From NCBI GenBank assembly GCA_009602725.1, contig WELB01000116.1:253021-304923 (forward strand): DNA of 51,903 bases, given 5' to 3'. The notes under the pieces are model-generated. The model was not told the origin of the DNA, did no database searches, and was given only the letters and a program-made list of their open reading frames with translations. Positions 7,910 through 47,812 of the stretch are shown piece after piece. Position 1 is the first letter of the stretch. Every line of letters begins with the position of its first letter. Both the position numbers and the translations under genes were made by a program. Origin of the DNA: Spirogloea muscicola. Lineage: Eukaryota > Streptophyta > Zygnematophyceae > Spirogloeales > Spirogloeaceae.

Positions 7910-8432
7910 AGCCCCTTTCGGACCTTGTCCATTCTTTCGCAGGTGGCGGCGCACGTGGTGGCGCACGTTCCTCCGCTGTGCAAACCGCGGCGAACGGCTG
8001 CCCATGACCTCCTCAGGGATGCAACATTTGGGTCCAGGTCTTCCGCATGCGGCTGTCTGTCTCTCTCCAACGCTCCCTGGGTCACGCAGTCCACTTGCGG
8101 GCAGGCCGCGCTATGGATGGTGCTTCTGGGTCTCGGCGTGGATATTTCCCCACCTGCGAGCCACTCCGATTTGCTGCTGCTCACTCGTGGTTACCAAGCT
8201 TCCATTTGCGCCAGTCTCGTGCATTGCTGTGTGGCTTAGGCGCCTTTCGGCTCGTTGGACCTTGTTCATTCGTCTTGGGCTGGCCTTTCCCAGCCCCTAC
8301 CTTCCTTGGGTGAACATTTTCTTGCTGTAGTCTCGTGCATAGCTGTATGGGTTAGGCGCCTTTCGGCTCTTTGGACCTTGTCCATTCTTTTTGGGCAGGC
8401 CTTTCTCAGCCACCGTCATGATTGGGCGAGCT
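7910..8432 (+). mobile_element. Non-LTR retrotransposon fragment with two tandem 3' tails
   Basis: Broken remains of the C-terminal part of the non-LTR reverse transcriptase family in this window. The Cys/His segment (LCANRGER, then TAAHDLLRDATFG after a frameshift) is near 7970-8030. An internal deletion then joins it to MRLSVSLQRSLGHAVHLRAG (8047-8106), and the reading frame is lost near 8150. After it come two copies of a ~110-base 3' tail (about 8214-8320 and 8327-8432). The first has a perfect GGGCTGG/CCAGCCC hairpin at 8277-8296; the second, at 8391-8411, is eroded. A short upstream piece at 7913-7937 matches the tail motif TTCGGACCTTGTCCATTC. Confidence 0.75.
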
Positions 8433-8715
8433 TCTAAATGTTTGGCAGTTTCATCTCGCTTGGAGAAGGTCCCCGCATCATTGCGGGTGTGGTGACTACC
8501 GACTCCGTCAACTCCACCAATGCCGGCGTCGACAGCAGGGCACGCGGTCGGCACAGCGGGTCAGGGCAAGGAGCGCAGATATGCGGATTACCCGGGTGGA
8601 GATGCGCAGCACTCGCGATAGACGTGCAAGGGGCCTTCGGCAGTCGCTGGCTGGACCTTCTGTAGCGGCTTGCCCGGCAGGCCATCGAGCGTCGGCAGGG
8701 TTGTCGTGTGACATG
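8433..8715 (+). mobile_element. Non-LTR retrotransposon fragment, nuclease-like domain
   Basis: Fragment of the C-terminal domain joined directly to the tail of the preceding copy. PRIIAGVVTTDSVNSTNA (about 8470-8525) matches the ARIIADVVTTDVV segment of the copy at 34433-36590. After a frameshift, LAIDVQGAFGSRWLDLL matches its LAVDVHRALGSQWLDLL segment. It ends without the usual LLTRGY end or tail, so it is truncated at both ends. Confidence 0.7.
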
Positions 8716-9006
8716 GTGTCGGTTGCTAATTAACGTCGATAGGACAGATGTGTGTGAAATGCAGGTGACAAGATTGAGTCCACGTGACTGGCAACGCCAA
8801 ACATTTAAAATGGAGATAGAAAACGAGATGCATGTTGCTGGGTTTGAAATGAAATGGATAGTTTGGAGAGTGTAGCATTGGAGTGAGAAGGTAAGTGGAG
8901 CTTGTGATGGATGATTCCAGTTTATAGTCACGACGCAGCAGTAATAGTATCAGTGACAGTCTCGGTTTCTGGACAATTAAGATATATTCGATAGCGCCCA
9001 ATTAAA
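8716..9006. other. AT-richer spacer, no gene recognised
   Basis: Lower-GC DNA between a retroelement fragment and a 36-base tandem repeat. No homology to the other repeats in the window was seen and no convincing reading frame was found. Confidence 0.4.
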
Positions 9007-9124
9007 GGGACTTCGGACAGAACCAGTTTCACGCCCAAGTATGGGACTTCGGACATAGCCAGTTTCACGCCCAATCAAGGGACTTCGGACAGAACCACTT
9101 TCACGCCCAATGAAGGGTCTTAGA
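9007..9124. repeat. Tandem repeat, 36-base unit, three copies plus a partial
   Basis: Units at 9007-9042, 9043-9078 and 9079-9114 each begin GGGACTTCGGACA and contain TTTCACGCCCAA. They differ at only a few positions. A decayed fourth unit starts at 9115. The sequence just before (GCGCCCAATTAAA, to 9006) looks like the end of an earlier unit. Function unknown. Confidence 0.9.
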
Positions 9125-9327
9125 ACCAGTACAGAATGCTCACGAAGATGCAATCAATACAATGGATGGGGATTAAGCAAGATCACGTATGTCTAGCCAA
9201 AGCACCGGTTTACGTACCAATTGACGGAGTTCGCCGGTAGACGGCTCCTCAAGTAGACGACCTAACGCGCCAGCCGGTGCCTTCCTGGCACGTCCGGAAC
9301 GCTCACTCGATGTCCGCTGGTTGTTCA

Positions 9328-9434
9328 GCGGTGCGGCGGCGGAGACAGCGACGACGACAGCAGCGGCGACGACGGCAGCGACAACGGCAGCGACGACAAC
9401 AGCAGCGACGACGGCGGCGGCGGCGGCGGCGGCA
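9328..9434. repeat. Imperfect trinucleotide tract (CGA/GCA/CGG)
   Basis: About 100 bases of loosely alternating CGA, GCA, ACA and CGG triplets, ending in a pure GGC run. It translates to Ala/Thr-rich or Arg-rich strings depending on frame, with no sign of a real protein. It lies just before a retroelement tail and may be an expanded target or junction sequence. Confidence 0.8.
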
Positions 9435-9486: not shown

Positions 9487-9645
9487 CTCCCCCGTTCTGC
9501 CATAGCCTCTTCAGGCCCCGCAGTCGCTGCTTAGCTCGTAGTTTGGCCCCTTCGAACCTTGTCAATTCTTTTCGGGCTGGCTTCTCACAGCCCTTGCCCC
9601 CATTGGGAGAGCCACTTCCTTATTTCTTTAGCCCTCCGCTCGCTT
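9487..9645 (+). mobile_element. Isolated 3' tail of the hairpin-tailed non-LTR family
   Basis: Tail sequence only, without coding part. It runs from CCTCCCCCGTTCTGCCATAG through CCCCGCAGTCGCTGCTTAGC to the hairpin GGGCTGGCTTCTCACAGCCC at 9574-9593, then CCATTGGGAGAGCCACTTC. The same order is found at 13290-13515 and, reversed, at 32690-32815 and 36700-36830. It defines the longest form of the tail. Confidence 0.85.
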
Positions 9646-9784: not shown

Positions 9785-9900
9785 CAAGGGAGCAAGCGCG
9801 GCCCAGATTAACTGGTGGTTGGGAGAGGCCAGCCCAAAAGAATGGACAAGGTCTGAAGGAGTCGGAGTGCTAAGGACTGAGACAGCAGCAAGGCCAGTGT
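9785..9900 (-). mobile_element. Isolated 3' tail, reverse orientation
   Basis: Nearly identical over about 100 bases to the tail of the copy at 13965-14065, including AAGAATGGACAAGGTCTGAA and GCTAAGGACTGAGACAGCAG. Here no LLTRGY coding end is attached, so this is an extremely 5'-truncated copy. The hairpin is formed by GGTTGGGAGAGGCCAGCC, with a G-to-T change in one arm. Confidence 0.8.
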
Positions 9901-10261: not shown

Positions 10262-11962
10262 GCAAAGGAAATTTCGTGTATTTGAAACAAACGAAGGCCA
10301 AATGGCCAAGTACAAAGGCAAGCACATCTTAAGACCTACATAACCTACAGTAGATTGACCCGCTCAGAAACCACGGGTCAAAACATAAAGGTCGCTAACC
10401 GATGCCTGGATACTAGATGGCAGATACGAAGCCCTTCTGCCACCAACTAGAGCTCGCCCAGCTTTCTGGTGCAAAGCCTGAGCACGCAAACATGCCGAAA
10501 CTCGTCGTCGCAACAACGACAGATAAGCAGCTGGCAAGCCCATCTCAGCCGGGAACACATCTGCATGTCGTGTGTAGCCTAGATTGGCTATGTTTTGAAG
10601 GAGAGTAAGGAAACGAGGACCTAAGCAGCCAAAGATGTCAATTGCCGCTGGCAAGAGTTGATCACACCGGGGGTAATCGGAGTAGTGCTGCAACTTTCTT
10701 TGTTCAGCACTGCCCACTGCGTGGCCAGCGATGTGTGTCGATGCTGGACCTTTATAGGCCTCCGTAACCACAGTATCGACCAAAGCTCTTGGTCCTCCAC
10801 CGGGTTGCACGCCCACAATGTCAAGTGTGCGGAGATGATGACGTCCCTGGGCATCCGTGGTGATAGGCATGATGTTGTTCACTTCCACGACCGCACGGTA
10901 CCCGGCGTCGCGCATCAAACCCGCCAGAGCATCACGGACGAGGTTGTGGATGCCCACCACTTCTGGTCCAATGGGGCATCGCAGCATGTGAGTGGCGAGC
11001 TCAGCACTCTCTGCACGGAAGCCGCACTCGCACCGGCGCACCCCAATCAGGCACTTAGGTGGGAGGCCGAGGAAGAGTTGAAGCAACGTCCGAAAGGCCT
11101 CGGAGCTGGCTGAAGGCGCTGGCCACAGCGTGTGAGGTGATCCAGTCTGTGGCTCCAGGTGTGGCGAGGGAAGTAAGTCTTGCCAGGCTCCTTGGATTGT
11201 TGTGAATCTCTGGCAGCCTCCTCAAGTTTCTGCGGCGCTCATCTTCCACTGCCGTAACCAGTCTGAATTGTGCCCCTCTATCCGAAGCTTGGGCGAGGGC
11301 GGAGAATGGCGTGAGTAGGGGTTGTATAGAGGGGAAAGAGCCGATTGCCGAGTCACGGATGCTCCTCAGATCCGCTTGGAAGGGTAAGGAGCCTTCCTCC
11401 ACGTTGCGTACGGGATCGTGGAGGCAAGGGAAGCGCATGGGAAGCATAGAGGCGATCTGGTGCCAGCAGCCCAGGAAGGCTGCTTGCGCCGTCTGCTCCA
11501 AAGACCGGCAGCCAAGGCCGCCCATGCGAGTGGGGAGGGAAGCCTGGAGGGCAGATGAAGCGGAGGGGAAAGAGGAAGATTGTAGAAGGGATGCCAGGGA
11601 CTGCAGCAGGGAGTTGTCGAATTCCTTGTAGAGCTCGCCCACCATGCCCATTGGGGGGACTGTCCGCTTGAGGATGGCCAGCCCATTGGCAGGGGTCTGG
11701 CAGCCGTGGGGGAGCTGAAGGTTGGCGGGGAGACCACGTGGGGACCATGCCACGCTCTTGGATGGGCAAACCCGCAGGCCCATCAGGTCCAGTTCGCGAA
11801 CAAGCAAGGGGTAAGCCGCCATGACTTCAGCTGGAGGTCCAATGATGCGTGTATCATCGGCGTAGGAGGGAAAGAGGAGGTCTGGGTGTTGCCTCTGGGT
11901 GCGCCGTACAGCCCGACAATGTGCCAAGGCAAACAGGATTGGGCTAAGGGGATCCCAAAAGG
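10262..11962 (-). mobile_element. Non-LTR retrotransposon copy, family A (RT C-terminus, nuclease-like domain, 3' tail)
   Basis: Truncated at its 5' end inside the reverse transcriptase: it starts at DPLSPILFALAH (about 11960) and continues to the catalytic SYADDTRIIG. The thumb region contains VAWSPRGLPANLQLPHGC. One frameshift near 11105 separates this from the downstream frame (about 11110-10364), which holds a Cys/His cluster (CECGF, then THMLRCPIG) and the HNLVRDALAGLMRDAGY helix. It also carries EVNN, LDIVGV and ALVDTVVT, where PD-(D/E)XK nucleases have acidic residues, and ends YVLTRGF. The 3' tail (10363-10262) lacks the hairpin; it contains TACTTGGCCATTTGGCC and TTTGTTTCAAATAC, shared with 36596-36655. 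The copy cannot make a full protein. Confidence 0.85.
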
Positions 11963-12270
11963 GGAGCTGCCCGGCCTTCAACGCTGCCGGGTCGCTTGCC
12001 CAGGTATTCTGCACGGGGCTCTCTTGTCTCCTTCCAACGCTCCCTGGCCCTACCCGTGCACTTGCAGGGAGGCCGCGCTAAGGCTGCTGCTTGTGGGTCT
12101 CGTGGGGACGCCTCTTTTCCAGCTGCAACTTGCTCCGACTTGCTGCTGCTGACCCGGGTTTACTAAGCAACTCTCCGCTGTAGTCTCGTGCATAGCTGTG
12201 TGGTCTAGGCGCCTTGCGGCTTTATGGACATTGTCCAGTTTCTTTGGGCTGGCCTCTCCTAGCTACCTTC
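11963..12270 (+). mobile_element. Non-LTR retrotransposon 3' fragment, head-to-head with the family A copy
   Basis: Opposite in orientation to the preceding copy and abutting it near 11960. It holds FNAAGSLAQVF, then after a small disruption FQRSLALPVHLQGGRA and the coding end DLLLLTRVY with stop at 12163-12165. The tail follows: GTGCATAGCTGTGTGG, GACATTGTCCAG and GGGCTGGCC. Its antisense supplies the first residues of the reading frame running into the family A copy, so that frame's apparent start is an artefact. Confidence 0.8.
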
Positions 12271-12344
12271 TTAAAGCAAAGTCAGCACAGATGGAATTAA
12301 GCAGCTATGAAACACTCACCGCCGTCCGCTGGAAGTGTCTTGCT

Positions 12345-12475
12345 CTCTTAAACTGGGCGAGCTTCTTCTCTTTTCTTTCTGTTTAAATTGCACTGATTCT
12401 GCCTGAACAATGTATTGGCTGGAATTGGCCTCCCTTCCACTTCATGCGCACCTCGCGCCTTCTCTCTTTCTCTTT
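12345..12475 (-). repeat. Dispersed repeat R3, copy 1
   Basis: In reverse orientation it reads GCGCGAGGTGCGCATGAAGT, then GGGAGGCC, then CATTGTTCAGGC. The same order of blocks occurs at 37468-37560 and 41530-41650. No coding potential. It is wedged between a retroelement tail and the next coding fragment. Confidence 0.7.
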
Positions 12476-12479
12476 TCCT

Positions 12480-13135
12480 GGAGGCAGGGTACACGGTGGA
12501 GATCGAGAAAACGGCCATCATGCCCATCCTGCAGATTTCACATGAGCAGAGGGCTGATGGACTCCATACTCGGCCGGTCGACCTGGTGGCCACCACGCCG
12601 GCCAGCAGCGCGAGAGTCATTGCCGACCTGGTCACCACAGGTGTTTGACACTTTAATGCGGGTGGTCTCGCTCCAGCGCTCTCAGGCTCATGCGGTCCAC
12701 ACGCGCGCTGGCCGTGCTATGGCTGCTGCCTCAGGGTCTCGGCAGAGTGCCGCTTTTCCTGCTTCGAGTTATTCTAATTTGCTGTTGCTCACTCGTGTTT
12801 ACTGAGCATCCATCTGCATCATTTCGTGTCTTGGTGTGTAGTTTTGTCTTCCTGGCACTGTTTTGTGGCCTTTGAGGCCTGCGGACAATGTCTGTTCTAT
12901 TCTGGGCTGGCTTTGCTAGCCCCTCTTTTACTGTGGGCGAGCCCTTCTCTCTCCATCCCTGCAGCGAGCTACTCTGATTGATATTACTCACTCGTGGGTA
13001 CTGAGCTTCCCTCTGCATCATGTAGTTGGTCCTTTTTTGGCACCTTAATCTTTCCCTGCAGCGAGCTACTCAGACCTGATGTTGCTCACTCGTGGGTACT
13101 GAGCTTCCCTCTGCATCGTTTCTGTGTTCTGCAGT
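12480..13135 (+). mobile_element. Non-LTR retrotransposon fragment with repeated coding ends
   Basis: EAGYTVEIEKTAIMPILQ through RVIADLVTTGV (12481-12648) is the nuclease-like domain. An internal deletion joins it to SLQRSQAHAVHTRAGRAMA and LLLLTRVY, stop at 12803-12805. The tail carries GGGCTGGCTTTGCTAGCCC at 12904-12922. A ~97-base unit is then tandemly repeated (12957-13053, 13054 onward). Each unit includes CCCTGCAGCGAGCTACTC and encodes a variant of the SYSDLMLLTRGY end, so the stop region itself has been duplicated. Confidence 0.8.
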
Positions 13136-13177
13136 GTTTTGTAGTGTAGTCCTTTCTCCGGCTCCTCTTTCTTCGGC

Positions 13178-13520
13178 TTTGGACATTGTCCATTCTTTTT
13201 TGGGCTGGCTTTCATCAGGGGGATAGTTTTACGGCAGCTAGTCTGTCGGATGTGAGGCTCCTCACTCGTAAGTACTGAGTGGTCCATCCTCCCCCGTTCT
13301 GCCATAGCCTCTTCAGGCTCCTCTTTGGACATTGTCCATTCTTTTTTGGGCTGGCTTTGCCAGCCCCTCTTCTCTATGGGCGCGCACTTCTCTCTTCAGG
13401 CCCCGCAGTCGCTGCTTAGCTCGTAGTTGGCCCCTTCGAACCTTGTCAATTCTTTTCGGGCTGGCTTCTCGCAGCCCTTGCCCCCATTGGGAGAGCCACT
13501 TCCTTCCTTTTTCCAGCCCC
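13178..13520 (+). mobile_element. Two stacked 3' tails with a minimal coding end
   Basis: A tail fragment at 13178-13220 runs into a short coding end (ASLSDVRLLTRKY, stop near 13278). A full tail follows, with the perfect 8-bp hairpin GGGCTGGC-TTT-GCCAGCCC at 13348-13366. A third tail (CCCCGCAGTCGCTGC to CCATTGGGAGAGCCACTTC) has its hairpin at 13458-13477. Orientation is set by the flanking GGACATTGTCCATTC on the left and GGGAGAGCC on the right. Confidence 0.8.
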
Positions 13521-13589
13521 TATCCTCAATGGGCGAGCCCTTCTCTCTGTATGGGCGCGCACTTCTCTCTTTGTCAGCTCCTCTTCTCT

Positions 13590-13885
13590 ATAGGCGAGCA
13601 CCGTCTCGCTGCAGAGGTCTATGGCCCGCGCGCTGCACCTGCGTGCAGGCAGAGCCCTCGCTGCTGCCTCTGGCTCTGGCCAGGGGACCCGCTTCCAGGA
13701 ACCCAGTCTCTCTGACCTGAGGCTGCTTAGCAGGGGTTACTGAGCTGCTTCGTTTCTTTTCTGTGCTTGTTGTTCTTCGTACTTCCCCTGGCCCCTTCTC
13801 GTCCTTTGTTCATTCTTTTCTGGGCTGGCTTTTTCCAGCCCCTATCCTCAATGTGCGAGCCCTTCTCTTTGAAAACTATCCCATC
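13590..13885 (+). mobile_element. Short non-LTR 3' fragment (about 47 codons plus tail)
   Basis: SLQRSMARALHLRAGRALAA begins immediately after a tail end (TATAGGCGAGCACCG) and runs in frame to LRLLSRGY, stop at 13740-13742. The tail then contains TGTGCTTGTTGTTCTTCGTA and a perfect hairpin GGGCTGG-CTTTTT-CCAGCCC at 13822-13841. The same tail version is repeated at 14905-15040 without coding part. Confidence 0.82.
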
Positions 13886-14895
13886 CCCCTGACGAAAAAG
13901 AAGTGGCTCTCCCAATGGGGGCAAGGGCTGTGAAGAAGAAGTGGCTCTCCCAATGGGGGCAAGGGCAAGCGCGGCCAGATTAACTGGTGGCTGGGAGAGG
14001 CCAGCCCAAAAGAATGGACAAGGTCTGAAGGAGTCGGAGTGCTAAGGACTGAGACAGCAGTAAGCGAACTCTCAGTAACCTCTCGTCAGCAGATGCAAGT
14101 CTGAGTAGCTAGCAGGCGGAAAGACGTCGCCCTGACGGAAGCCGGAGGCCGCCGCCAGAGCGCGGCCTGCGCGCAAGTGGACCGCAAAAGCTAGGGACCG
14201 CTGCAAAGAGACGGCCAGGCGCATCCGGTAAACTTGGGCGAGGGACCCGGCGACATGGAAGCCAGGCTGCTCGCCTTGCTGCCCGTCGCGGCGGGCCGCT
14301 GCTCGCCGCGCAAGGCGGTGAAGGAGGTCCAGCCATTTGGCGCCAAAGGCGCCGTGTACGTCGACGGCGAGTGGGATAAACTCGTCGCCTACCGGGTGAT
14401 CTGAGTACTTGCGCTCCTTTGCGGCGGCCGCTTGGCGGACGGCGTAGCCCGCCTCCTCCGCCGAGCGTGTTGCGCTCCTGGAATCCAAGGAGTCCGTTGT
14501 GACGACGTCGGCAATGAGCCGAGGCCCCCGCCCAGCGCGCTAGCGACGAGATCGGCGCGCCGGGTGTGGAGGCGGCCGTCCGCCCCAGCAGTCAGAGGCA
14601 TGATGCTGGAGTTCTCCAGCGCCACAGTGTAACCGGCTTCGACAAATATGCCAAACATCGCGTTCCGGAGCAGGTCGTGTGTGCCGGTCCGCTCCCCTCC
14701 CCGTGCGCATCGGAGCATGTGAGCTGCCAGTAACGCCGCGTCCGGGCTGCGCTCGCCGCACTCGCACTGTTGTACTCCACCTAGGCATGGTGGGTGGAGG
14801 CCGAGGAGGCGGTGCACCGCCGTTCGGAATGCGGCGTCCGGCATCCGGAGCGCGTCGTGGAGGGCTGTGAGAAGCCAGCCCGAAAAGCCAGAGGC
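13886..14895 (-). mobile_element. Non-LTR retrotransposon 3' half, nearly open reading frame
   Basis: Coding from about 14883 to 14072. It holds the segment before the zinc cluster (FRTAVHRLLGL), the Cys/His cluster (CECGERSPD, AAHMLRCARGGERTGTHDLL), the nuclease-like domain (ENSSIMPL, RRADLVAS) and the C-terminus VHLRAGRALAAASG to LHLLTRGY. One frameshift in a G-rich run near 14523 moves the frame just before LIADVVTTD; otherwise the frame is clean, so this copy is fairly young. The tail has its hairpin at 13989-14006 and ends near 13965; a second tail piece follows at 13925-13890. At its 5' end, hairpin sequence of an older tail joins straight to coding sequence near 14880. Confidence 0.85.
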
Positions 14896-14904
14896 GAATC
14901 CGCA

Positions 14905-15040
14905 CTTGCCTTGAGCTTTTCTGTGCTTGTTGTTCTTCGTACTTCCCCTGGCCCCTTCTCGTCCTTTTGTACATTCTTTTCTGGGCTGGCTTTTTCCAGC
15001 CCCTATTATCAATGGGCGAGCCCTTCTCTACTGGGAGGTA
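14905..15040 (+). mobile_element. Isolated 3' tail (hairpin type)
   Basis: Close match to the tail at 13750-13870: CTGTGCTTGTTGTTCTTCGT, CCCCTGGCCCCTTCTCGTCC and the perfect hairpin at 14983-15002 (GGGCTGG-CTTTTT-CCAGCCC). No coding part. It lies back to back with the minus-strand copy ending at 14895, forming an inverted arrangement just upstream of the TBCB gene. Confidence 0.8.
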
Positions 15041-32689: not shown

Positions 32690-33110
32690 AAGTGGCTCAT
32701 CCAATGGGGGCAAGGGCTGTGAGAAGCGACGAGCTAAGCAGCGACTGCGGGGCCTGAAGAGGCAATGGCAGAACGGGGGAGGATGGAGCACTCAGAAGCT
32801 ACGAGGGAGGAGCCTCACATCCGACAGACTAGCAGCCGGAAAACTATCCCCCTGACGAAAGCCGGAGGCCGCAGCGAGAGCACGGCCAGCACGCAGATGC
32901 AAGGCGTGGGCCATGGACCGTTAGAGGGAGACCAGGCGAGGGCTGCAAACGAGAAGAAGGACGCTTCAGGAGAGGGTGGCTGTGAGAGGCCAGCCCAGAA
33001 GAAAGAAGAAGTGGCTCTCCCAACGGGGGGTAAGGGCTGTGAAAAGCCAGCCAAAAAAGAAGAAAACGAAGAAGAAAGAGCCAGCCCAGGATGACATTGA
33101 CAAGGTCCAA
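32690..33110 (-). mobile_element. Non-LTR retrotransposon 3' fragment with several tails
   Basis: A decayed coding end is read at 32950-32815: the antisense of GCCGGAGGCCGCAGCGAGAG encodes the RAGRALAAASG-type block, then a damaged LLTRSF end. Its tail (32815-32690) has the long form with CCCCGCAGTCGCTGC, but a deletion has removed the left arm of the hairpin. Upstream (33110-32975) are two more tails with intact GGCTG/CAGCC arms at 32978-32995 and 33035-33052. Confidence 0.7.
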
Positions 33111-33888
33111 AGGGCCGAATGGCGCTGGACTCAGCTGCTCGGTTTCCCGCATCATATCCAACCTACCCAAACCCCCCCTCCTTTGGGAAGCGGGAACCAG
33201 ACACCGGCAGTTCAGTATTTGGGCGGCGGTTAGCGACCTCGACATTTTGAGAGAGCTGCTGCTTCTTCTTCTACGTGCTGACCAGCAGCTATCCAGCAGC
33301 TTGGTACGGCTACAGGCGGCCCACATGTCCAGATGCGCCTGCTCTTAACACCTGGCTGCTCTAACCTGCTAGCGTCCCCTTGCGCTCCAGCGGCAAGCTC
33401 TGCTCTTGCCGAGACGCTGGCGGCCAGCAGCTGCGCCTCACGCTTCCTTTTTGTCGCCCCGCCTCACCCTCCCCACTCACTCGCTGACCCTCCCTGAGCT
33501 GCCCATTGCAGCCTCCTGCAAGAGCTTGATTTCTTTATTGCACCTACTGCCACCCCTCTCTGCCCTTACCAGCTGATGCCTCGGGACAGCAGCTGGCTCA
33601 AGGGTTTCTCTGGACCAACACTTGCATGCTGGAACCCGCATGCCCTTCTCAAGGCCCGCACCGAGGGCAGGCACACAGCCGTGACGCAAACAATCCCGCG
33701 CAGACGGACTGTGCCGCCAACAGACTGCGATTGGCAAGTGGCCCTCTGGCCACCCCATGGAATGGGTCGTTGGAATTTACGGCTGAACCCGACGATGCTC
33801 AGCCCAAACCAACGGGTTGACGAGATGACCAGTACGTGCTAGCCCGAATCTCTCTTTCTTATTCAACAACTTAGTACAAAGAGAGAAT
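33111..33888. other. Spacer, no gene recognised
   Basis: Short open frames on both strands show no family resemblance. No copy of the window's repeats was recognised between about 33130 and 33860. It may be old retroelement 5' sequence or ordinary intergenic DNA. Confidence 0.35.
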
Positions 33889-34300
33889 TGCTCGCCCTTA
33901 GAGAAGAGGGGCTGGCAAAGCCAGCCCAAAGAGAATGGACAATATCCAAAGGCCAAAAGGACGAAAGTAAAACTACACAACTAGACACGAGCCGATGCAG
34001 ATGGAAGCTCAGTACACGCAAGTGAGCAACATCAAGTCTAAGTAGCCCGCTGCAGGACGAGGAGCACTTCGGCGAGACCCTGAGGCAGCAGCCATAGCGT
34101 GGCCGGCACGCGTGTGAACCGCGTGAGCCAGAGAGCGCTGGAGAGAGACGGAGAGCTGCATGCGAAAGACCTGAGCGAGCGAGCCGGCAGCATCGAAGCC
34201 CGGCACCTCCCCTGGCGGACCCGCCCGCCGATCTATGGCCTGCCGGGCAAGCCGCTGCAGGAGGTCCAGCCAGCGACTGCCGGAGGCCCCGTGTACGAAG
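33889..34300 (-). mobile_element. Non-LTR retrotransposon 3' fragment, tandem with the next copy
   Basis: Coding from about 34297 (GASGSRWLDLLQRLARQAID) through AAGSLAQVFRMQLSVSLQRS to LMLLTCVY, stop near 34009. This is in one frame without interruption (about 95 codons). The tail (34008-33890) has the perfect 8-bp hairpin GGGCTGGC-AAA-GCCAGCCC at 33909-33927 on the plus strand. Its 5' end joins the tail of the copy at 34301-36590 at GTACAC/GGGGCCTCC near 34295. Confidence 0.83.
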
Positions 34301-36590
34301 GAAGGGAGTGGCTGTCCCAATGGGGGCAAGGGCTGTGAAAAGCCAGCCCGAGAAGAATTGACAAAGGTTCGAAGGGGCAAGATGACGCAGGGGCCTAAAA
34401 CGATGTGGCAGAATGGGTGGAGGATGGACCACTCAGAAGCTACGAGTGAGGAGCCTCAAATCCGACAGACTAGCTGCCGGAGAACAATCCCCCTGGCAAA
34501 AGCCAGAGGCTGCAGCGAGAGCTCGGCCAGCACGCAGATGCAAGGCGTGTGCCATGGACCACTCAAGGGAGACTGACAACCGCATGCGATAGACTTGAGC
34601 CCATGAGCCAGCGGCGTTGAAGTCGGCCGGCTCTCCTCGCCTCCGGGACACAGCGCGCCGCGCAAGCTTGGCCAGCAGGTCGAGCCACTGGGACCCAAGA
34701 GCCCTGTGTACATCCACGGCCAGGGATACGAACTCGTCCCCAGCCGGGTGATCAGCAGGTTTGGCCGCCTTGCAGCGAGCGGCTTTCGCCGCAGCGTGGC
34801 CAGCCCGCGAGGCAGGAAACCCCAGATTGGAGCGGTCGACCACATCAGTGGTGACCACATCAGCAATGATGCGCGCGCCGCCGCCCGGCGTGGATGCCAC
34901 CAGGTCGACGCGGCGCGTGTGGAGTCCGTCGGCTCGCTGGAGGATTGGCATGACAGAAGTATTCTCCATCGCCACCGTGTGTCCGGCCTCCTGGAAGATG
35001 CCGAACATTGCATTCCGGAGGAGGTCGTGAGCAGCTGTACGTTCACCTCCAGTGGCGCAGCGGAGGACATGCGCCGTCAGCTCCGCCGGGTCCACCAATC
35101 GATCCCCGCATTCACACTGCAGCACGCCTGGCAGACAGGGCAGGGGGAGACCTAACAGGCGGTGGACTGCCGTGCGGAAAAGTTCATACGGCATCCTGAA
35201 TGCATCGTAGAGGGGGAGCGCGGAGAGCCAGGCTCCCGCGCCAGGGGAGGAGGCCAACCGCAGCTGAGCGTGGCTGCGCACGTCCGTCGGAGGGAGGGGC
35301 CGCAGCGTGGCCACGAAGGCCGCCTTGTCGACCTCCGCCAAGTATCGCGCCTGCGCCCGCGAGTCGATGGAGTGGGCCAGGTGCGCAAACGGCACCACGC
35401 TCTCCGCGAGGGCCGGGTGCTCCACGAGCAACTCGTGTTGAGCAGAGCGGAGCGCCACCTGAAAAGGCAACGAGCCGGTCGCCACCTCCGCCACAGGCTG
35501 CTGCAGCATGGGCCGCCCATCCTGGAGGAATCGCTGAGCCACTGCCGTGGCGACCTGAGCCCAGCTGCCGAGGTACGGTGGCCTGCAGATGCGAGCGAGC
35601 GAGCGGCAGCCGAGGCCGCCGTGGCTGAGGAAAAGAGCAGCCTGGTGCACAGCGGCTGTCGAGTCGAGAAAGCCCGAGTGTCGTATGAGGACTGCCACGC
35701 TCTCCATGACGCCGGTGTCGAACATGGCGTAGGCCACCAGCACCGTGTGGCAGGGAGGTGTAGCCCGCGCAAGGTAGTGGGGCCGCTGGACGATGCTTCT
35801 GGTGAGCATGGCCAGGGCCAGCTGCATATCCTGCAGCTCTGGGAGGCGGGCAGCCAATCGAAAGTGCTCCTGGAGCCGGGCGCGCAGCTGTGCGTCCACG
35901 AAGGATGGCGTGCCGAGGGGAAACCCCAGGATGGTGAGGCCGCCCGGAGGGGTCTGGCATCCGGTGGGCAGAGGCAAGGGGGCAGGCAAGCCGCGAGGCG
36001 ACCACGCGACGCACTTCTCAGCCCGAATGGTCAAGCCGAGGGCGGCCAGCTGCTGCTGGAGGGTGGCGGTGGCTGTCAGCACATCCCCTGGGCTGCCGAC
36101 CAGTGTGGTGTCGTCGGCGTAGGTCGGCAGGAGGACGCTGGGGTGCGTCGCCGCGGTGGCCTTGAGAGCACGATTGTGCGCAGCGCGAAAAAACTCCTGC
36201 CAGAGGATTTCCCTGGCGTGTGCCCGTCCTCGACTGCAGCGTCTCCACCTCACCACTCCCTGTCCGCCACAGAAGGTCGCTGGGCCAGCCGTAGCCGCGG
36301 CGGAAGAAGGGAAGGAGGGAAGGGAAGGCCGCACGCAGCTCCTCGGCGATGGCGCTGCACTCCACGCTGTTGGATGCGATTTGGACATCAACAGCGAGGA
36401 CCATGCAGTCAGGGTGGGGATCCAGGGCCGCGCGGACGCCGTGGACGACAGCCTCCCCGCCGCTTCGTAGCCCAGCGCCGTATGGATGTGGGGCAAGGTG
36501 GGTCTGCGCCTGCCCAAGAAGGAAGGGGCTACGAAAGTCAGCAAGCGAAAGCAGCTACGAAAGCGAAGAAGGTTGGATGAGAGGAAAGTC
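34301..36590 (-). mobile_element. Longest non-LTR retrotransposon copy (RT, zinc cluster, nuclease-like domain, hairpin tail)
   Basis: Most complete copy of the hairpin-tailed family. It starts in the RT fingers (GGEAVVHGVRAALD near 36440), then MVLAVDVQIASNSVE, GTRQGNPLAGVF and the catalytic PTYADDTTLVG near 36115. It continues through VAWSPRGLPAPLPLPTGC to the Cys/His cluster (QCECGDRLVD, TAHVLRCATGGERTAAHDLL near 35060). The nuclease-like region (ENTSVMPI, RRVDLVAS, ARIIADVVTTD) and VHRALGSQWLDLL end in LRLLTRSF, stop at 34433-34435. Two frameshifts disable it: one near 36447, and one in a run of six A (36188-36193, plus strand) between the RT boxes. From about 36185 to the stop the frame is open. 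The tail (34432-34301) carries its hairpin at 34330-34349. No APE-type endonuclease or ORF1 is present; the copy is 5'-truncated. Confidence 0.88.
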
Positions 36591-36595
36591 GTGTG

Positions 36596-36655
36596 TTTGA
36601 AACAATCGAAGCCAATATGGCCAAGTACAAAGAGGCAAGTACATCTCATGACGTA
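36596..36655 (-). mobile_element. Family A 3' tail, about 60 bases
   Basis: TTGAAACAATCGAAGCC, ATGGCCAAGTACAAAG and GGCAAGTACATCT match the tail of the family A copy at 10262-10330 block by block. It lies just 5' of the copy at 34301-36590 and supplies the first residues of the reading frame that continues into that copy. It is evidently a separate, almost completely truncated insertion. Confidence 0.75.
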
Positions 36656-36699
36656 GCAGCTAGCATCTAGCAGCTGCTGGAGCTGCTAGAGAAGAAGAA

Positions 36700-36830
36700 G
36701 TGGCTCTCCCAATTGGGGAAAGGGCTGTGAGAAGCCAGCCCGAAAAGAATTGACAAGGTTCGAAGGGGCCAAACTACGAGCTAAGCAGCGACTGCGGGGC
36801 CTGAAGAGGCTATGGCAGAACGGGGGAGGA
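36700..36830 (-). mobile_element. Isolated hairpin-type 3' tail, long form
   Basis: GAAGTGGCTCTCCCAATTGG, hairpin GGGCTGTGAGAAGCCAGCCC at 36722-36741, GAATTGACAAGGTTCGAAGG and GCGACTGCGGGGCCTGAAG in the same order as the reverse of 9487-9645. No coding part. Short repeats of GCTGGAGCTGCTAGAG flank it at 36676 and 36950. Confidence 0.82.
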
Positions 36831-37560: not shown

Positions 37561-37639
37561 ACGAAGCCCTTGGTAAGGTGGATAAGGTGAGGTAAGGTGA
37601 GAGAAGGCGCGACAAGAAACGGGTCTTTCTATTGACGGC

Positions 37640-37690
37640 AATGGCTGTGTGAGAGGCCAGCCCAAAGGAGTGGACACGGTCTGAACCGTG
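37640..37690 (-). mobile_element. Hairpin-type 3' tail fragment
   Basis: ATGGCTGTGTGAGAGGCCAG and CCCAAAGGAGTGGACACGG match the reversed tail. The GGCTG/CAGCC arms are intact at 37643-37662. It is the last piece of the second graveyard, about 180 bases before the next gene's start codon. Confidence 0.7.
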
Positions 37691-41650: not shown

Positions 41651-41682
41651 CTAAGGGGCTAAGGGGGCCCCCCTTTGCTTTG

Positions 41683-42115
41683 TGGCCGAACAGAAGAAGT
41701 TGTACAAGTACAAAGACCACCCGGCGGGTGATACCTTTTACCCCCTGGCCATGGACATCCATGGGTGTTACGGGGGGTCGGTGGTCCTCGTTACTTTCGC
41801 TGCTGGCATCTCAAGCTGACCAGCGGCGCCGGGAACAGTGTGCAGCCCTCCCCGGTGGCTCGGTGCCTTTGGGTCTTGTGTCCTGCCACCGCATGCGTTT
41901 GTCTATGTCGCTACAGCGTTCCCAAGCGCTTGCTTTGCATCGCCGCGCTGGTCGTGCCCTTGCAGCAGCCTCTGGCTTGCGCAGCGGGGTTGCTCCTCCT
42001 CCCCTCAGCTCATCTGACTTCCTACTGCTGACACGGGGTTATTAAGAGCGCCCTGGCTGCCTAGCCTGTGGCTCCGTCATGAACACCTGTATGCATCTGG
42101 CTGGCTTTCACAGCC
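41683..42115 (+). mobile_element. Non-LTR retrotransposon 3' fragment
   Basis: KKLYKYKDHPAGDTFYPLAM and DIHGCYGG (41693-41776), then a frameshift, then MRLSMSLQRSQALALHRRAG through FLLLTRGY with stop near 42043. The tail holds GGCTG-GCTTTCA-CAGCC at 42099-42115. This fragment preserves the block between nuclease-like domain and C-terminus better than most, which allowed recognition of the decayed copy at 26170-26240. Confidence 0.82.
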
Positions 42116-42205
42116 GCTCTATTAATATCAGCAGCCGCATTCCTTCTTTTTTTTTTTGCTAAGGGGCGCTGAGGTAACAGTGTGAATGCAGGCTGAAAAG
42201 GGACG

Positions 42206-42417: not shown

Positions 42418-42842
42418 TGTTGAATTTCCTGGGCTGGCCGCTCCTGTATCTGCTCCTGTTCCTGTTCCTGTCTGTTGTAGTCAGTGTTCTCAGATTGTTC
42501 CTTCCGCCAGTCGAAGTCCTCCATCGGACGTTTGCCCTTGTCTATGGGCCCAGCAGACCGCCCTCGACGCGGCGGCACAGAAGCAGATGCGCTCATGGCG
42601 CCAGACAGATTCAGATCTCAGACAGTCAGTCAGTCTGACAGCACAGGCTCCGCCCTCACCCAAGGTGGGTGGCAGCCATGGCTAGGGCGCACGGGCGCAC
42701 CGCGTGGCCTCATATTTATGGGAGGTGTTCCGATGGGTGGCCGAGGCCTCCCTTATCCAGGGGAGACTCTCACGGCCCAATTAGACGGTTGGGATGGTCA
42801 CCCACCCCGACCCGCCGATTCACCATATTTCTATCTTCAACA
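42418..42842 (-). mobile_element. 3' LTR of the copia element (425 bp)
   Basis: Begins TGTTGAA and ends TTCAACA on the plus strand, a 7-base inverted terminal repeat with TG/CA ends. It differs from the other LTR (47008-47432) at about five positions, so insertion was recent. In the element's sense it is preceded by the polypurine tract TGGTGGGAG (42851-42843). It still contains the duplicated start of the gag frame (ATG at 42596), read here for about 60 codons before running into host DNA. Confidence 0.96.
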
Positions 42843-45800: not shown

Positions 45801-47186
45801 CAGATGTTGTGTCTCAGTGCCATGGAGGGTAGGCACTTGCAGCTGCACTTCTCCTTTTCCCACAGCAGGCTGCACACTATCATCACCCAGATAAATCTTG
45901 AAATCCGGAACAGATTGGTAATTGTGGAGCCAATCCCGCCTGTAAGTGAGATGGTGAGACGCTCCACTATCGATCAGCCAGCTATCACAATTCGACCTGT
46001 CAGATTGTCTAGACAGGTGAGCTTCTCCCTCAGCATAGCTGCCTCTACCTCTTCTACTATTGTTACCAGATCCCAGAGCCTTCTTCTTGGGACAGTCGTT
46101 GATCACATGACCAGGTTCACGGCAGTAGAAGCAAGTTCTAGGGTACAGAGGATTCTTATTCCATCCTGCAAACTGATCTTCACTCAGACGACTACTATCA
46201 CCAGTCCCGCTCCGAAGACTGCGAGCAACATTGTGCTGATGAAGCCTCGATTGATTCAAGTGGTGTCGAAGGTCTTGCTCAGATTGGCGTCTAGCCAGCA
46301 GCGCTGCTTGTGCACCTGTCAGAGAGCCTATCAGAGAACCTGTCAGCGAACCTGTGTTCAGAGAGCCTGTTGGAGGTCCTATCTGATATCCTGTCAGAGA
46401 ACCTGTCAGAAGTCGATGTTGCTCCTCCAATGCTCGCTCCTTATGAAGGAGGCGAGCCAGCACATATTCTACAGTCAGTTCGTCGGTGCTGACCATCTGC
46501 AATGTATCTCTGACAGTATCATATGCAGGCGGGAGCCCCATAAGTATGGCAAGAACTAAGAATCGGACCGGAACCTCCTCTCCAATGTCTTGCAGCTGAA
46601 GGGCCAATGATTCTACCCTGCTTACAAATGCTTGGATGGGCTCATCTTCCTCCTTTCTGCACTCGCGCAAGCGCATGCTGAGGTAGTAAGCCCTGTCAGT
46701 TCCTCGGTTCTCAAACTTGTTCTTGAGATACTCCCAGATGCCACTGGCCAGAGACAGGTTGACAACGCCTATCACCTCTTCATCAGCCAGATTTGCTGCA
46801 AGAATTGCTGAGGCTACAACATTCTCACGAGAGAAGGGCCGACAAAGCCCTCGATCAGCTGGAGGCTCTACAGCATCCCAGACATTTTGAAACTGAAGCA
46901 GCTTCTTCATTTTATACTTCCAGACTGACCAGTTGGTATCTCTGGCTAGCTTGGGAGTCAGAACAGGGAGCGAACCTAGGGAACCCCCAAGGGGTGGGCC
47001 CATAATCTGTTGAGTTTCCTGGGCTGGTCGCTCCTGTATCTGCTCCTGTACCTGTTCCTGTCTGTTGTAGTCAGTGTTCTCAGATTGTTCCTTCCGCCAG
47101 TCGAAGTCCTCCATCGGACGTTTGCCCTTGTCTATGGGCCCAGCAGACCGCCCTCGACGCGGCGGCACAGAAGCAGATGCGCTCAT
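42837..47186 (-). CDS. Copia gag-pol polyprotein, intact, 1449 codons
   Basis: Single uninterrupted frame of a Ty1/copia retrotransposon. Residues 1-60 lie in the 5' LTR. Gag-like region 85-255; zinc knuckle CFYCREPGHVINDCPKK at 352-368; aspartic protease WLIDSGASHHL at 403. A pre-integrase His/Cys zone (WHARLGHPN at 560, CRSC at 594) leads to the integrase triad: Asp in HSDVCGP (625), Asp in RSDNGGEY (688) and Glu in QNGVAERWN (724). Reverse transcriptase spans about 970-1160 with LYVDDL (1117-1122). RNase H lies near 1290-1400 (FCDADWAGS, VEAEYMA, FSDSQG). Order protease-integrase-RT-RNase H defines copia. A TGSL-repeat stretch (260-291) and a Gln/Val repeat stretch (519-546) are unusual inserts. 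The stop TGA (42839-42837) is inside the 3' LTR. All catalytic residues are present. Confidence 0.98.
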   Translation of the reverse strand: MSASASVPPRRGRSAGPIDKGKRPMEDFDWRKEQSENTDYNRQEQVQEQIQERPAQETQQIMGPPLGGSLGSLPVLTPKLARDTNWSVWKYKMKKLLQFQNVWDAVEPPADRGLCRPFSRENVVASAILAANLADEEVIGVVNLSLASGIWEYLKNKFENRGTDRAYYLSMRLRECRKEEDEPIQAFVSRVESLALQLQDIGEEVPVRFLVLAILMGLPPAYDTVRDTLQMVSTDELTVEYVLARLLHKERALEEQHRLLTGSLTGYQIGPPTGSLNTGSLTGSLIGSLTGAQAALLARRQSEQDLRHHLNQSRLHQHNVARSLRSGTGDSSRLSEDQFAGWNKNPLYPRTCFYCREPGHVINDCPKKKALGSGNNSRRGRGSYAEGEAHLSRQSDRSNCDSWLIDSGASHHLTYRRDWLHNYQSVPDFKIYLGDDSVQPAVGKGEVQLQVPTLHGTETQHLTNVYHAPGLASNLLSVSQLLDQGYQVVFDRDICTITRSGVPTLTGRRSGDLFTLNGQVQVQAVEIQNQVQKQMQVQKQMQVQGRVNVSESDKKTFEQWHARLGHPNVQRMKKLKSMVHGVDTLTQDVESEFCRSCAQGKLHLQQPLAGEHYRASTLLELVHSDVCGPMQIPSLGGSRYILSFIDDASRWSKVYFLKNKSEVLEKFVRFKAAVELQTGKKLKALRSDNGGEYTSQEFERFCKQQGIHRQLTATYRPQQNGVAERWNRSVMEIARCLLFHSYTPSEFWAEAVATAVYLKNRMPTSAVKDMTPQEFWTGKRPTVAHLRVFGCTAWMHVPTEMRHKLQSKARQCVMVGYGEHVKAWKLFDLENRRMVFSRDVMFDEQRSPDYSAFPLRPSETVGEVQWWPVSQEPDIVATVEAGSESGDGVEARTGGDDLEETTATLGVSRTDVRAFAAVVLHEPLTMQEAMSSDAALKWKAAAEAELDSIKENKTWDLVELPAGRKAIPSKWVFKIKLKGDGSVDRYKARLVAKGCAQKEGIDYNETFAPVVKNSAVRSLLAMAAIHDLEVEQMDVTTAFLNGDLEEEIYMQQPAGFEVKGKESKVCKLKKALYGLKQAPRAWYAQIDTFLVNQGFKRSEADHSVYVRKKPAKVVLALYVDDLILLGDSATEVKRVKQELSSRFKMKDLGPLEYFLGIQVKRDRSRKILTLSSSKYITEVLDRFGMQDCNPISTPQDTKQTLSKNQGPKTNQDRQKMAQVPYREAVGCLMYIAVAARPDIAAAVGVVAQFVQDPGCEHWQAVKRIMRYLQGSKNLCLTFRNSGDKSDELVGFCDADWAGSLDDRRSVTGYAFELGAGAVSWSSRKQQTVATSTVEAEYMATTAAAKEATWLRRLLQECGFLSSSSATTLFSDSQGSIALIKNPVYHARTKHIEIQHHFIREKVDEGVIEMQYCSTADMTAHILTKGLPKPKYDRCRSLLGLADSHIWWEC
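42843..42851 (-). promoter_or_regulatory. Polypurine tract of the copia element
   Basis: TGGTGGGAG in the element's sense, immediately before the 3' LTR start TGTTGAAG. This is the expected place and composition for the plus-strand DNA primer. It also codes for the last residues of the polyprotein (WWE, then C and stop in the LTR). Confidence 0.85.
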
Positions 47187-47432
47187 GGCGCCAGACAGAT
47201 TTAGATCTCAGACAGTCAGTCAGTCTGACAGCACAGGCTCCGCCCTCACCCAAGGTGGGTGGCAGCCATGGCTAGGGCGCACGGGCGCACCGCGTGGCCT
47301 CAGATTTATGGGAGGTGTTCCGATGGGTGGCCGAGGCCTCCCTTATCCAGGGGAGACTCTCACGGCCCAATTAGACGGTTGGGATGGTCACCCACCCCGA
47401 CCCGCCGATTCACCATATTTCTATCTTCAACA
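47008..47432 (-). mobile_element. 5' LTR of the copia element (425 bp), containing the gag start codon
   Basis: Same ends and length as the left LTR. The gag ATG lies at 47186-47184, 247 bases into the LTR in the element's sense. The coding frame runs through the LTR/internal boundary without a stop (residues about 60-62). Just inside the boundary, TGGGCCCACCCCTTGG (about 47002-46987) could be a primer-binding site because it begins TGG. No tRNA match can be asserted from sequence alone. Confidence 0.95.
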
Positions 47433-47437
47433 CAGAT
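47433..47437. repeat. Target-site duplication, right copy (CAGAT)
   Basis: Identical to 42413-42417 and directly after the TTCAACA end of the LTR. Confidence 0.95.
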
Positions 47438-47444
47438 TTCAGGT

Positions 47445-47812
47445 ATTGAGAGAACAGCGCTCTTAAATTGACTGGTGGCTATGAAAGGCCAGCCCAAAAA
47501 CTGAACAAGGGGCCGGATGGCACAAATAACGAGATACTAATTGCTAAGGCGGCAGCAAGGGGGCTCTCAGTAACCGCGAGTCAGTAAGTGCAATTCAGAG
47601 TAACTAGCAGGCGGATAGACGTCGCACTGACGGAAACCGGAGGCAGCAGCCAAGACGCGACCTGCACGCAAGTGGACAGCGAAGGCAAGGGACCTCTGCA
47701 AGGAAATGGCCAAGTGCATCCGGAACAATTGAGCAAAGGACCCGCGGCATTGAAGCCGGGCTTCTCGCCCTGCTGCCCTTGGCGGCGGGCCAGTATTAAG
47801 GTCATCCACCGT
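47445..47812 (-). mobile_element. Non-LTR retrotransposon 3' fragment
   Basis: Minus-strand coding end: CRGSFAQLFRMHLAISLQRS and VHLRAGRVLAAASGFRQ to LHLLTRGY, stop at 47567-47569. The tail (47566-47450) contains GGCTATGAAAGGCCAGCC at 47478-47495. One G-T (G-U in RNA) replaces a G-C pair there and one mismatch is present. The copia element inserted just beyond the tail's end. Confidence 0.83.

What the first reader, a model, noticed from the sequence alone, without database searches (positions are those of the whole stretch)
7910..47812. Conserved RNA-like hairpin in the 3' tails of a non-LTR retrotransposon family
About twenty tails on both strands share the order GGACCTTGTCCATTC, a GGGCTGG/CCAGCCC hairpin, then CCATTGGGAGAGCCACTTC. 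Perfect 7-8 bp stems occur at 8277-8296, 13348-13366, 13822-13841, 14983-15002 and 33909-33927. Six-bp stems occur at 9574-9593, 13458-13477, 34330-34349 and 36722-36741. Loop sequence and length vary (TTT, CTTTTT, CCTTTC, GCTTCTCA) while the arms stay paired. At 12904-12922 a C-to-T change keeps pairing as G-U. In several families the RT recognises a 3' stem-loop of its own RNA; by inference this is the RT recognition element here.
Basis: partly seen in the sequence, partly recalled or inferred. Interest (0 to 1): 0.78.

Follow-up and report, generated by a model that had tools for sequence, protein, structure and literature searches.

The report
Conserved tail hairpin in algal retrotransposons
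The far end of a very abundant group of jumping genes, probably from a green alga, carries a short self-complementary sequence kept almost unchanged while its surroundings vary, most likely the tag by which the element's own copying enzyme picks its RNA; this is a new example of a known kind of signal, and the RNA fold itself is not proven.

Summary
The quoted hairpins exist at the stated coordinates. They lie in 3' tails of single-ORF retrotransposons with an R2-like reverse transcriptase and restriction-like-endonuclease motifs. GGGCTGG-N3..8-CAGCCC occurs 12,931 + 12,801 times in 153 Mb; the mirror pattern 6 + 7 times. In five lineages the arms start 40-46 nt before the 3' end. Arm positions deviate 1-7% from consensus (outermost 28%), loop positions up to 51%. 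The arms are conserved as sequence; pairing is plausible, unproven. Copies without arms are few: of 100 ORF-anchored loci, 72 have both arms exact. Best explanation: the last ~65-75 nt is the recognition tag for target-primed reverse transcription, as the last 67 nt is for R2Tg. Copies end precisely beside pyrimidine (CTTC-like) sites, some with 8-10 bp flanking repeats.

The parts
8254..8319 (+). tail of the type I label RT9, with hairpin 8277-8296 (7 bp)
   Evidence: profile hit E 6e-15; letters; best library match RT3 over 38 nt only
8369..8435 (+). RT9-like tail, tandem copy of the previous one (116-bp period), stem GGGCAGG/CTCAGCC with one A-A mismatch
9549..9617 (+). RT1c tail, hairpin 9574-9593 (6 bp); the 5'-truncated copy is about 134 nt long
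9801..9858 (-). RT3 tail
   Evidence: E 1e-11
10364..12077 (-). RT2-lineage RT/C-terminal ORF remnants; 3' UTR after 10367 carries GGCCATTTGGCC instead of GGGCTGG/CCAGCCC
12224..12267 (+). RT9-like tail, 5' part, stem kept with G-U pairs, interrupted by an insertion; 3' part at about 12348-12366
12879..12946 (+). tail of the type I label RT8, hairpin 12904-12922 with G-U pair; the same C-to-T state is in L086 (copy with ORF end at 3412)
13177..13214 (+). RT7 tail interrupted in the loop by another insertion
13319..13391 (+). 73-nt RT7 insertion (box A, hairpin 13348-13366 of 8 bp, box C) inside an RT1c 3' UTR
   Evidence: 10-bp direct repeat CTCTTCAGGC at 13309-13318 and 13392-13401
13433..13501 (+). 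RT1c tail, by position that of the ORF end at 13275, hairpin 13458-13477 (6 bp)
13508..13601 (+). three short 3'-end pieces of tails (13508-13542, 13536-13564, 13570-13601; the last two above E 0.01)
13799..13864 (+). RT6 tail, hairpin 13822-13841 (7 bp)
13968..15027 (-). RT3 C-terminal ORF pieces (14072-15027, in two frames) with tail 13968-14030
14967..15025 (+). RT6 tail, hairpin 14983-15002 (7 bp)
32690..32932 (-). RT1c C-terminal fragment and partial tail (3' half of hairpin only)
33010..33113 (-). tail in two pieces (33077-33113 and 33010-33061, the latter RT1-like)
33886..33952 (-). RT7-like tail, hairpin 33909-33927 (8 bp)
34307..36685 (-). RT1 element: open RT/C-terminal reading frame 34433-36685 (750 aa) with its own tail 34307-34371, hairpin 34330-34349 (6 bp)
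36698..36766 (-). RT1c tail, hairpin 36722-36741 (6 bp), truncated copy of about 136 nt
37631..37685 (-). RT3-like partial tail
   Evidence: E 4e-6
41685..42120 (+). RT4 C-terminal fragment and tail, stem GGCTG/CAGCC (tail hit weak, E 0.035)
47453..47770 (-). RT3-like C-terminal fragment and tail (outer end of the finding)

Best explanation
The conserved block (box A, GGGCTGG-loop-CAGCC(C) inverted repeat, box C, pyrimidine end) is the 3'-terminal ~65-75 nt of a group of single-ORF, R2-like retrotransposons with a restriction-like endonuclease. In the element RNA the arms most likely fold into a 5-8 bp stem-loop. This stem-loop and the boxes around it form the tag that the element's own protein binds. 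The endonuclease nicks a pyrimidine-tract (CTTC-like) site, the exposed end anneals to the CUUC-type RNA end, and reverse transcription starts at the precise 3' end and often stops after tens to hundreds of bases. Since many tails end in CTTC, copies land in and beside each other, which builds the cluster seen here. Shown: a sharp 3' end motif, conservation of arms and boxes across lineages, pyrimidine-rich 3' junctions, an excess of short direct repeats, RT and endonuclease motifs. Inferred: folding in RNA, protein binding, annealing to the target.
For: Arms invariant or nearly so across 20 clade-I representatives. In 117 tails arm positions are 1-7% off consensus (the outermost 3' position 28%), loop positions 4-51%, flanking positions up to 59%. 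The same arms occur in RT4, whose RT region is 49-53% identical to those of RT1 and RT3 and whose 3' UTR I did not manage to align otherwise; in shuffled RT4 tails these arms appear in 33-67 of 20,000. The 5' arm lies 40-46 nt from the 3' end in RT1, RT3, RT4, RT6 and RT7. Ends: 109 of 140 ORF-anchored loci show the expected end motif, followed by about 6 pyrimidine-rich bases (T 0.73, 0.50, 0.53 at the first three; background T 0.21). Flank repeats: mean longest match 5.95 against 4.92 shuffled, above all 300 shuffles; 15 of 63 at least 8 bp, about five of these being tail words lying in the flanks. A 73-nt piece holding just box A, hairpin and box C lies between two copies of a 10-bp word (13319-13391). 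RT best matches R2 proteins; endonuclease motifs including KX2KY (compared with PMC5678591 passages). R2Tg needs only the last 65-67 nt of its 3' UTR, with two double-stranded regions (PMC12222951 passages).
Against: No covariation in the hairpin nor in an outer stem. Fold energy of the last 75 nt is unremarkable except in RT6, RT7 and one RT3 representative (mean z -1.10 over 28, against -0.60 in 27 flank controls, which themselves range from -4.38 to 2.45). RT2 has a different 4-bp hairpin (some such hairpin in 123-201 of 5,000 shuffles) and RT5 none by that definition; in shuffled RT4 tails some such hairpin is common (649-909 of 5,000). So the GGGCTGG hairpin is not universal. Three of 100 loci have small deletions in the arms. 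No partner SINE was found in the sample. No biochemical data. The CCHC spacing differs from the published one. The end motif was not found in 31 of 140 loci.
Confidence: 0.62

Rival explanations
1. The arms are a linear sequence signal (single- or double-stranded binding site for the element protein) that happens to be self-complementary; base pairing is not what is selected.
For: No both-sides change in 8 pairs of 20 representatives or in 117 tails; in pairs 2-6 single changes that keep pairing (13) do not outnumber those that break it (19); box A and box C positions outside the hairpin are also nearly invariant.
Against: Two arms that are exact reverse complements over 5-8 bp with a loop variable in length (3-8 nt) and sequence are hard to explain without pairing; lineages differ in stem length at the loop end (RT7 8 bp, RT6 7 bp, RT1 6 bp).
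Confidence: 0.2
2. The hairpin serves RNA 3'-end formation or stability (a transcript-end signal) rather than recognition by the RT.
For: It lies 40-46 nt from the 3' end in five lineages, and the RNA end must be defined somehow because the copies carry no poly(A) after the end motif.
Against: No Rfam family reaches its gathering score in the window. Recognition and end formation are not exclusive; the protein is R2-like and R2 proteins read an element of their 3' UTR.
Confidence: 0.1
3. The similarity is only recent common descent of young copies; no constraint.
For: Many copies are very young: 41 places (the window's own included) match 135-157 bases of a 157-bp tail query at 96-100% (40 of 1,759 candidates scored), and 718 exact matches of one 3'-UTR pattern exist.
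Against: Across lineages the arms stay while many neighbouring columns diverge by 20-59%; RT regions differ by about half.
Confidence: 0.03
4. The tag has a second helix beside the hairpin, as R2's P1/P2: either boxes A and C pair around the hairpin, or box C holds a small hairpin of its own.
For: RT6 and RT7 tails fold with an A-C stem (z -1.75 to -4.26). RNAalifold also proposes a 3-bp helix within box C (columns 52-54 with 60-62): 96.7% of cells paired, reached by 3 of 500 shuffles, one pair with both-sides changes in 3 sequences.
Against: A-C stem: cognate lineage pairings are no better than permuted ones (-46.0 against mean -45.9; rank 2494 of 5040), 1 of 9 pairs with a both-sides change, equal to shuffles, not found by RNAalifold. 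Box C helix: picked from the same alignment, only 3 pairs, and its double changes sit in the three RT3 rows (one inherited event), where a different 4-bp register (CCAG/CTGG) looks more natural.
Confidence: 0.15

Closest known systems
R2 retrotransposons (R2Bm, R2Tg) and their 3' UTR recognition element
   Same: RT closest among solved structures; zinc fingers, RT, CCHC-type knuckle and RLE motifs in one ORF; short part of the 3' UTR needed to start TPRT (R2Tg last 65-67 nt, R2Bm 40-nt core; passages of PMC12222951 and PMC10499050)
   Different: No 28S target seen: copies lie on many contigs, beside pyrimidine tracts; no Myb domain identified; CCHC spacing CX1CX11-12HX3C; hairpin sequence not compared with R2's
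Stringent-type LINEs with 3' stem-loop (UnaL2, ZfL2-1, ZfL2-2)
   Same: Conserved stem-loop near a non-poly(A) 3' end; lineages with different loops (abstract and introduction of PMC4176376)
   Different: Zebrafish examples are L2-clade elements whose tail-binding region lies between endonuclease and RT domains; partner SINEs known for stringent LINEs, none seen here
Dualen/RandI of green algae
   Same: Non-LTR elements present in core-Reinhardtinia algae (PMC8226300 passages) that encode an RLE (PMC4640811 passages)
   Different: Dualen encodes APE as well; no APE match in the three long ORFs here
Zepp/ZeppL of chlorophytes
   Same: Clustered LINE copies in green algae (PMC8226300 passages)
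   Different: Zepp/ZeppL are L1-clade elements; these are R2-like with RLE motifs

Membership tests
RLE-encoding LINE group (R2/R4/NeSL/CRE/HERO type) | non-LTR reverse transcriptase | tested here: met
   RVT_1 E 1.2e-14 to 7e-18 in four elements; best solved relatives are R2 proteins
RLE-encoding LINE group (R2/R4/NeSL/CRE/HERO type) | C-terminal RLE: conserved H, D/E after strand 1, D, D, KX2KY, GXW | tested here: met
   invariant H133, E154, D174, D189, K217 in A2, four sequences; KLHKY, KELKY, KLRHY, KATKH; GX2W or GX2F rather than GXW; motif list from PMC5678591 passages. By motif only: a profile of the C-terminus found 0 solved chains up to E 10, and a structure model was useless (pLDDT 37.6)
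RLE-encoding LINE group (R2/R4/NeSL/CRE/HERO type) | CCHC knuckle CX2-3CX7-8HX4C before the RLE | tested here: not met
   a CCHC is present in 4 of 4 but spaced CX1CX11-12HX3C; so I say R2-like/RLE-type and do not assign a clade
[quoted passage not shown]
   three stop-to-stop frames of 1313-1521 aa with CX2C...HX4C fingers read by eye; Pfam gave only weak zinc-finger matches below cut-off, no Myb
R2 clade proper | insertion in 28S rRNA genes | tested here: not met
   copies on many contigs, followed by pyrimidine-rich bases and often inside each other; no rRNA match in the window
Dualen/RandI | APE together with RLE | tested here: not met
   no endonuclease/exonuclease family listed up to E 1 in the three long ORFs (the fourth, 833 aa, lacks the N-terminal part)
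Stringent-type LINE | precise non-poly(A) 3' end with conserved tail | tested here: met
   109 of 140 loci show the end motif
Stringent-type LINE | RNA stem-loop supported by covariation | tested here: not met
   0 of 8 pairs, 0 double changes in 117 tails
Stringent-type LINE | partner SINE with the same tail | tested here: not met
   of 89 tails 54 reach the RT ORF, 33 stop within the 3' UTR, 2 had no match; no common head seen by eye
Stringent-type LINE | protein binds and needs the tail | not testable with these tools
   needs biochemistry

The most novel reading that the evidence does not exclude
A large R2-like, RLE-encoding LINE radiation in what is probably a green alga has escaped single-target specificity, uses short CTTC sites (including its own tails) as landing pads, and has reached more than ten thousand copies in at least seven lineages. 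Each lineage carries its own variant of a ~70-nt 3' tag, with the same rigid stem in clade I and RT4 and replaced stems in RT2 and RT5: a natural set of related and possibly orthogonal template tags for R2-type enzymes.
Probability: 0.35. Interest if true: 0.65.

Novelty: new member of a known kind. Interest (0 to 1): 0.45.

Why it matters
R2-type proteins are now used to write genes from RNA, and their 3' tags are a key specificity element (passages of PMC12222951). A genome with seven lineages of R2-like elements, many young copies and a tag only ~70 nt long would let one test directly which bases and which pairing the enzyme reads, and how a normally site-specific class became an abundant, dispersed one. 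If the stem is read as sequence and not as structure, that would itself be informative.

Tried and rejected
First box-A x box-C test on 49 representatives gave the wrong direction (p 0.9999), I think because the set was polluted by antisense and foreign tails; I replaced it by a cleaner 27-representative test, which was null. Structure prediction of the window's C-terminus was useless (pLDDT 37.6), so no fold search was run. C-terminal profile against solved structures: no hit up to E 10. Rfam: no hit at gathering scores in the window. SINE hypothesis: of the 100 listed (of 718) matches to a recurrent RT1c 3'-UTR start, 7 have a CTTC- or TTTCT-type upstream instead of the ordinary UTR, and three of these have a partner 110-112 bp away, so tandem tails rather than a SINE head. 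T-A to U-G to C-G series RT4-RT5-RT2 at pair 4: attractive, but MAFFT aligns the RT2 stem to the inner half of the GGCTGGC repeat instead, so I do not claim it. A 3-bp helix in box C: see rivals. RT stalling at the hairpin as the source of 28-38-nt 3' pieces: cannot be told from nested insertion into the loop (35 3'-half and 23 5'-half pieces). Tree of C-termini: 18 rows (one of 19 dropped as too short), midpoint root only, several long branches.
Full report
WHAT IS THERE. The window (G000:C116:253021-304923 of a 153.1-Mb, 471-contig assembly) is eukaryotic DNA. From the proline-rich SPPPP reading frames and base composition I take it for a green alga; this is inference, and no species name was available. 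A loose three-box scan gave 16 rows, which I read as 13 distinct sense tails (two doubles, one inside an RT frame), with none in the reversed or complemented controls. A sequence profile of 20 tails found 26 pieces at E<0.01 in the window and 91 in ten 10-kb neighbourhoods chosen around RT copies, and 0 hits at E<=10 in the reversed sequences. Genome-wide the exact pattern GGGCTGG-N3..8-CAGCCC occurs 12,931 times forward and 12,801 reverse; the mirror pattern, of equal composition and also a hairpin, 6 and 7 times. The 7-bp form is its own reverse complement and is counted on both strands.

WHAT CARRIES IT. The tails follow the ends of reading frames (mostly LLTRxY or LLSRGY before the stop) of non-LTR reverse transcriptases. 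Searches of the own genome with C-terminal protein pieces gave 11,580 to 21,061 rough first-look candidates per query, of which the best 150 were scored. I fetched 20 loci for each of seven lineages, 140 in all, chosen down each list and not at random, and three near-complete elements plus one 5'-degraded one. The three long stop-to-stop frames (1313-1521 aa) hold CX2C...HX4C fingers upstream of the RT (read by eye), RT (RVT_1 E 1.2e-14 to 7e-18 in all four) and no APE match up to E 1. The C-termini hold a CCHC of unusual spacing and RLE motifs with H, E, D, D, KX2KY and GX2W/F (motif list from passages of PMC5678591). Against solved structures the RT profile matches R2 proteins best (9nl3 4.6e-13, R2Tg 9dou 7.3e-13), then 8c8j and L1 ORF2p (1.5e-7, 3e-7). 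The RT regions of RT1, RT2 and RT3 are 49, 45 and 53% identical to that of RT4. A tree of 18 C-termini separates RT1, RT3, RT6, RT7, RT8 (clade I) from RT4, RT5, RT2; RT5 and RT2 join with 89/90 (midpoint root, several long branches).

ANATOMY OF THE TAIL. In 27 representatives, picked by me to span subfamilies, the inner stem starts 35-49 nt before the 3' end as set by the end motif; in the five lineages with the GGCTG/CAGCC arms, 40-46 nt. Stem length differs: RT7 8 bp (7 in some), RT6 7, RT3 6, RT1 6, RT4 5; loops are 3-8 nt. RT2 has GGCC-ATTT-GGCC; RT5 has GGCT...GGCC with a G-U pair. Shuffled RT4 tails show the GGCTG...CAGCC arms in 33-67 of 20,000 cases, though some 4-bp GC-rich hairpin at that distance in 649-909 of 5,000; shuffled RT2 tails show some such hairpin in 123-201 of 5,000; RT5 has none by that definition. 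The 3' end is sharp: in 109 of 140 loci the end motif was found, and the next six bases are pyrimidine-rich (T 0.73, 0.50, 0.53 at positions 1-3; background T 0.21, from the ten neighbourhoods). The motif sets where the end is taken to be, so in RT5-RT7 a few of these bases may still belong to the element. The other 31 loci were not scored: by eye many are cut by nested insertions, N runs or divergent ends. Direct repeats flank some copies: 63 of 64 complete tails had a 5' junction; the mean longest shared word of the flanks is 5.95 against 4.92 for shuffled flanks (largest of 300 shuffles 5.46); 15 of 63 are at least 8 bp, of which about five are tail words lying in the flanks. A clear case in the window: 73 nt of RT7 tail (13319-13391) lie inside an RT1c 3' UTR between two copies of CTCTTCAGGC.

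IS THE ARM PAIRING SELECTED? Arm positions deviate 1-7% from consensus in 117 tails (the outermost 3' position 28%), loop columns 4-51%, flanking columns up to 59%; box A (GT..ATTC) and box C (TGG..G.GC) hold further nearly invariant columns. So there is constraint. But covariation is absent in the hairpin. In 20 clade-I representatives, which I picked, 0 of 8 pairs change on both sides, equal to shuffles. In 117 tails, pairs 2-6 show 0 double changes, 13 single changes that keep pairing and 19 that break it. Genome-wide, both sides of the T-A pair changed in a TTTTN context gives 5 + 3 matches (control 0 + 1), of which four look like tails, three of those complementary. An outer stem between boxes A and C, suggested by folding of RT6 and RT7 (z -1.75 to -4.26), fails as a general feature (rank 2494 of 5040 permutations; equal to shuffles); four of 27 flank controls also fold below z -2.8. 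RNAalifold keeps the 5-bp core and proposes a 3-bp helix inside box C. That helix is paired in 96.7% of cells (3 of 500 shuffles as high) with both-sides changes in 3 sequences at one pair; it was picked from the same alignment and the changes are one RT3 event, so I treat it as a lead only. Most copies are, I infer, dead on arrival, so variation within a lineage is close to neutral and cannot test the fold; only differences between lineages can, and there the arms do not differ.

INTEGRITY IN COPIES. Of 100 ORF-anchored loci of the five hairpin lineages, 72 have both arms exact within positions 30-190 after the ORF end, 13 at most one change per arm, 3 lie in N runs, 12 had no match. Of the 72, at least two (L054, L124) carry another lineage's tail. 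Of the 13, L059 and L140 are not sense tails of the element, and L058, L125 and L143 belong to another lineage's tail, which leaves 8. Of the 12, by my reading are interrupted by other sequence, 3 (L012, L120, L154) have small deletions in the arms and 1 (L056) has exact arms at position 14.

MECHANISM. The most economical reading is an R2-like TPRT system whose protein recognises the last ~65-75 nt of its RNA. For R2Tg the last 65-67 nt, with two double-stranded regions, suffice (passages of PMC12222951); for R2Bm a 40-nt core with two stems is bound by an N-terminal extension of the RT (passages of PMC10499050), and motifs before the RT are needed for RNA binding (abstract of PMC4117753). 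For zebrafish L2-clade LINEs the stem-loop is bound by the region between endonuclease and RT (abstract and introduction of PMC4176376). The CTTC end and CTTC-like target suggest annealing of the nicked strand to the RNA end. These last steps are inference.

NOVELTY. The capped title lists of searches of the paper library show no title that describes this family or a 3' hairpin in an RLE LINE of a green alga. I saw abstracts, one introduction and passages only, and Repbase was not available; so absence from print is not shown. Dualen (APE plus RLE) and ZeppL are algal LINEs named in passages of PMC8226300 and PMC4640811. I file this as a new member of a known kind: a stringent-type 3' tag in an R2-like element with RLE motifs, clade not assigned.

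Noticed in passing
window 42418-47307 (-): Copia LTR retrotransposon with a 1456-aa open frame and two 300-bp terminal repeats 98% identical.
   Followed up: no
window 13508-13601 and 13901-13966: Very short (28-38 nt) 3' pieces of tails, several in tandem and starting in or near the hairpin loop; origin by nested insertion, template switching or RT stalling not resolved.
   Followed up: partly
window 8213-8426; G000 pairs such as C3:173917/174029 and C10:1078136/1078248: Tandem tails at 110-116 bp spacing; the genome pairs are joined at CTTC and look like end-to-end template jumping as known for R2-type enzymes (low-level template jumping of R2Bm in a passage of PMC10499050).
   Followed up: partly
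window 10364-12077 (-), loci L021-L040: RT2 lineage replaces the GGGCTGG hairpin by GGCCATTTGGCC; one divergent copy (L087, ORF end 7609) has the longer palindrome-like GTACTTGGCCAGTTTGGCGAAGTAC.
   Followed up: partly
L087 about 878-918 (-): An RT3 insertion of about 48 nt starting at the hairpin, inside an RT1 tail, flanked by CAATGGGG on both sides; one of the shortest insertions seen.
   Followed up: partly
A4 columns 52-54 with 60-62 (tails downstream of the hairpin): A possible 3-bp helix inside box C with one RT3-wide double change; small and picked after the fact.
   Followed up: partly
window 27421-30704 (-) and 38790-39539 (+): Long proline-rich (SPPPP) open frames, one beside an EGF-like stretch (EGF_Teneurin 1.4e-05); hydroxyproline-rich-type proteins suggest a green alga.
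   Followed up: no
window 8995-9121: 3.5 copies of a 36-bp tandem repeat (CGCCCAATTAAGGGACTTCGGACAGAACCAGTTTCA), not tail-like by eye.
   Followed up: no
window 6984-7907 (-): Open frame ending in a weak NAD_binding_8 match at its C-terminal end (E 0.0097, below cut-off); perhaps a flavoprotein exon.
   Followed up: no
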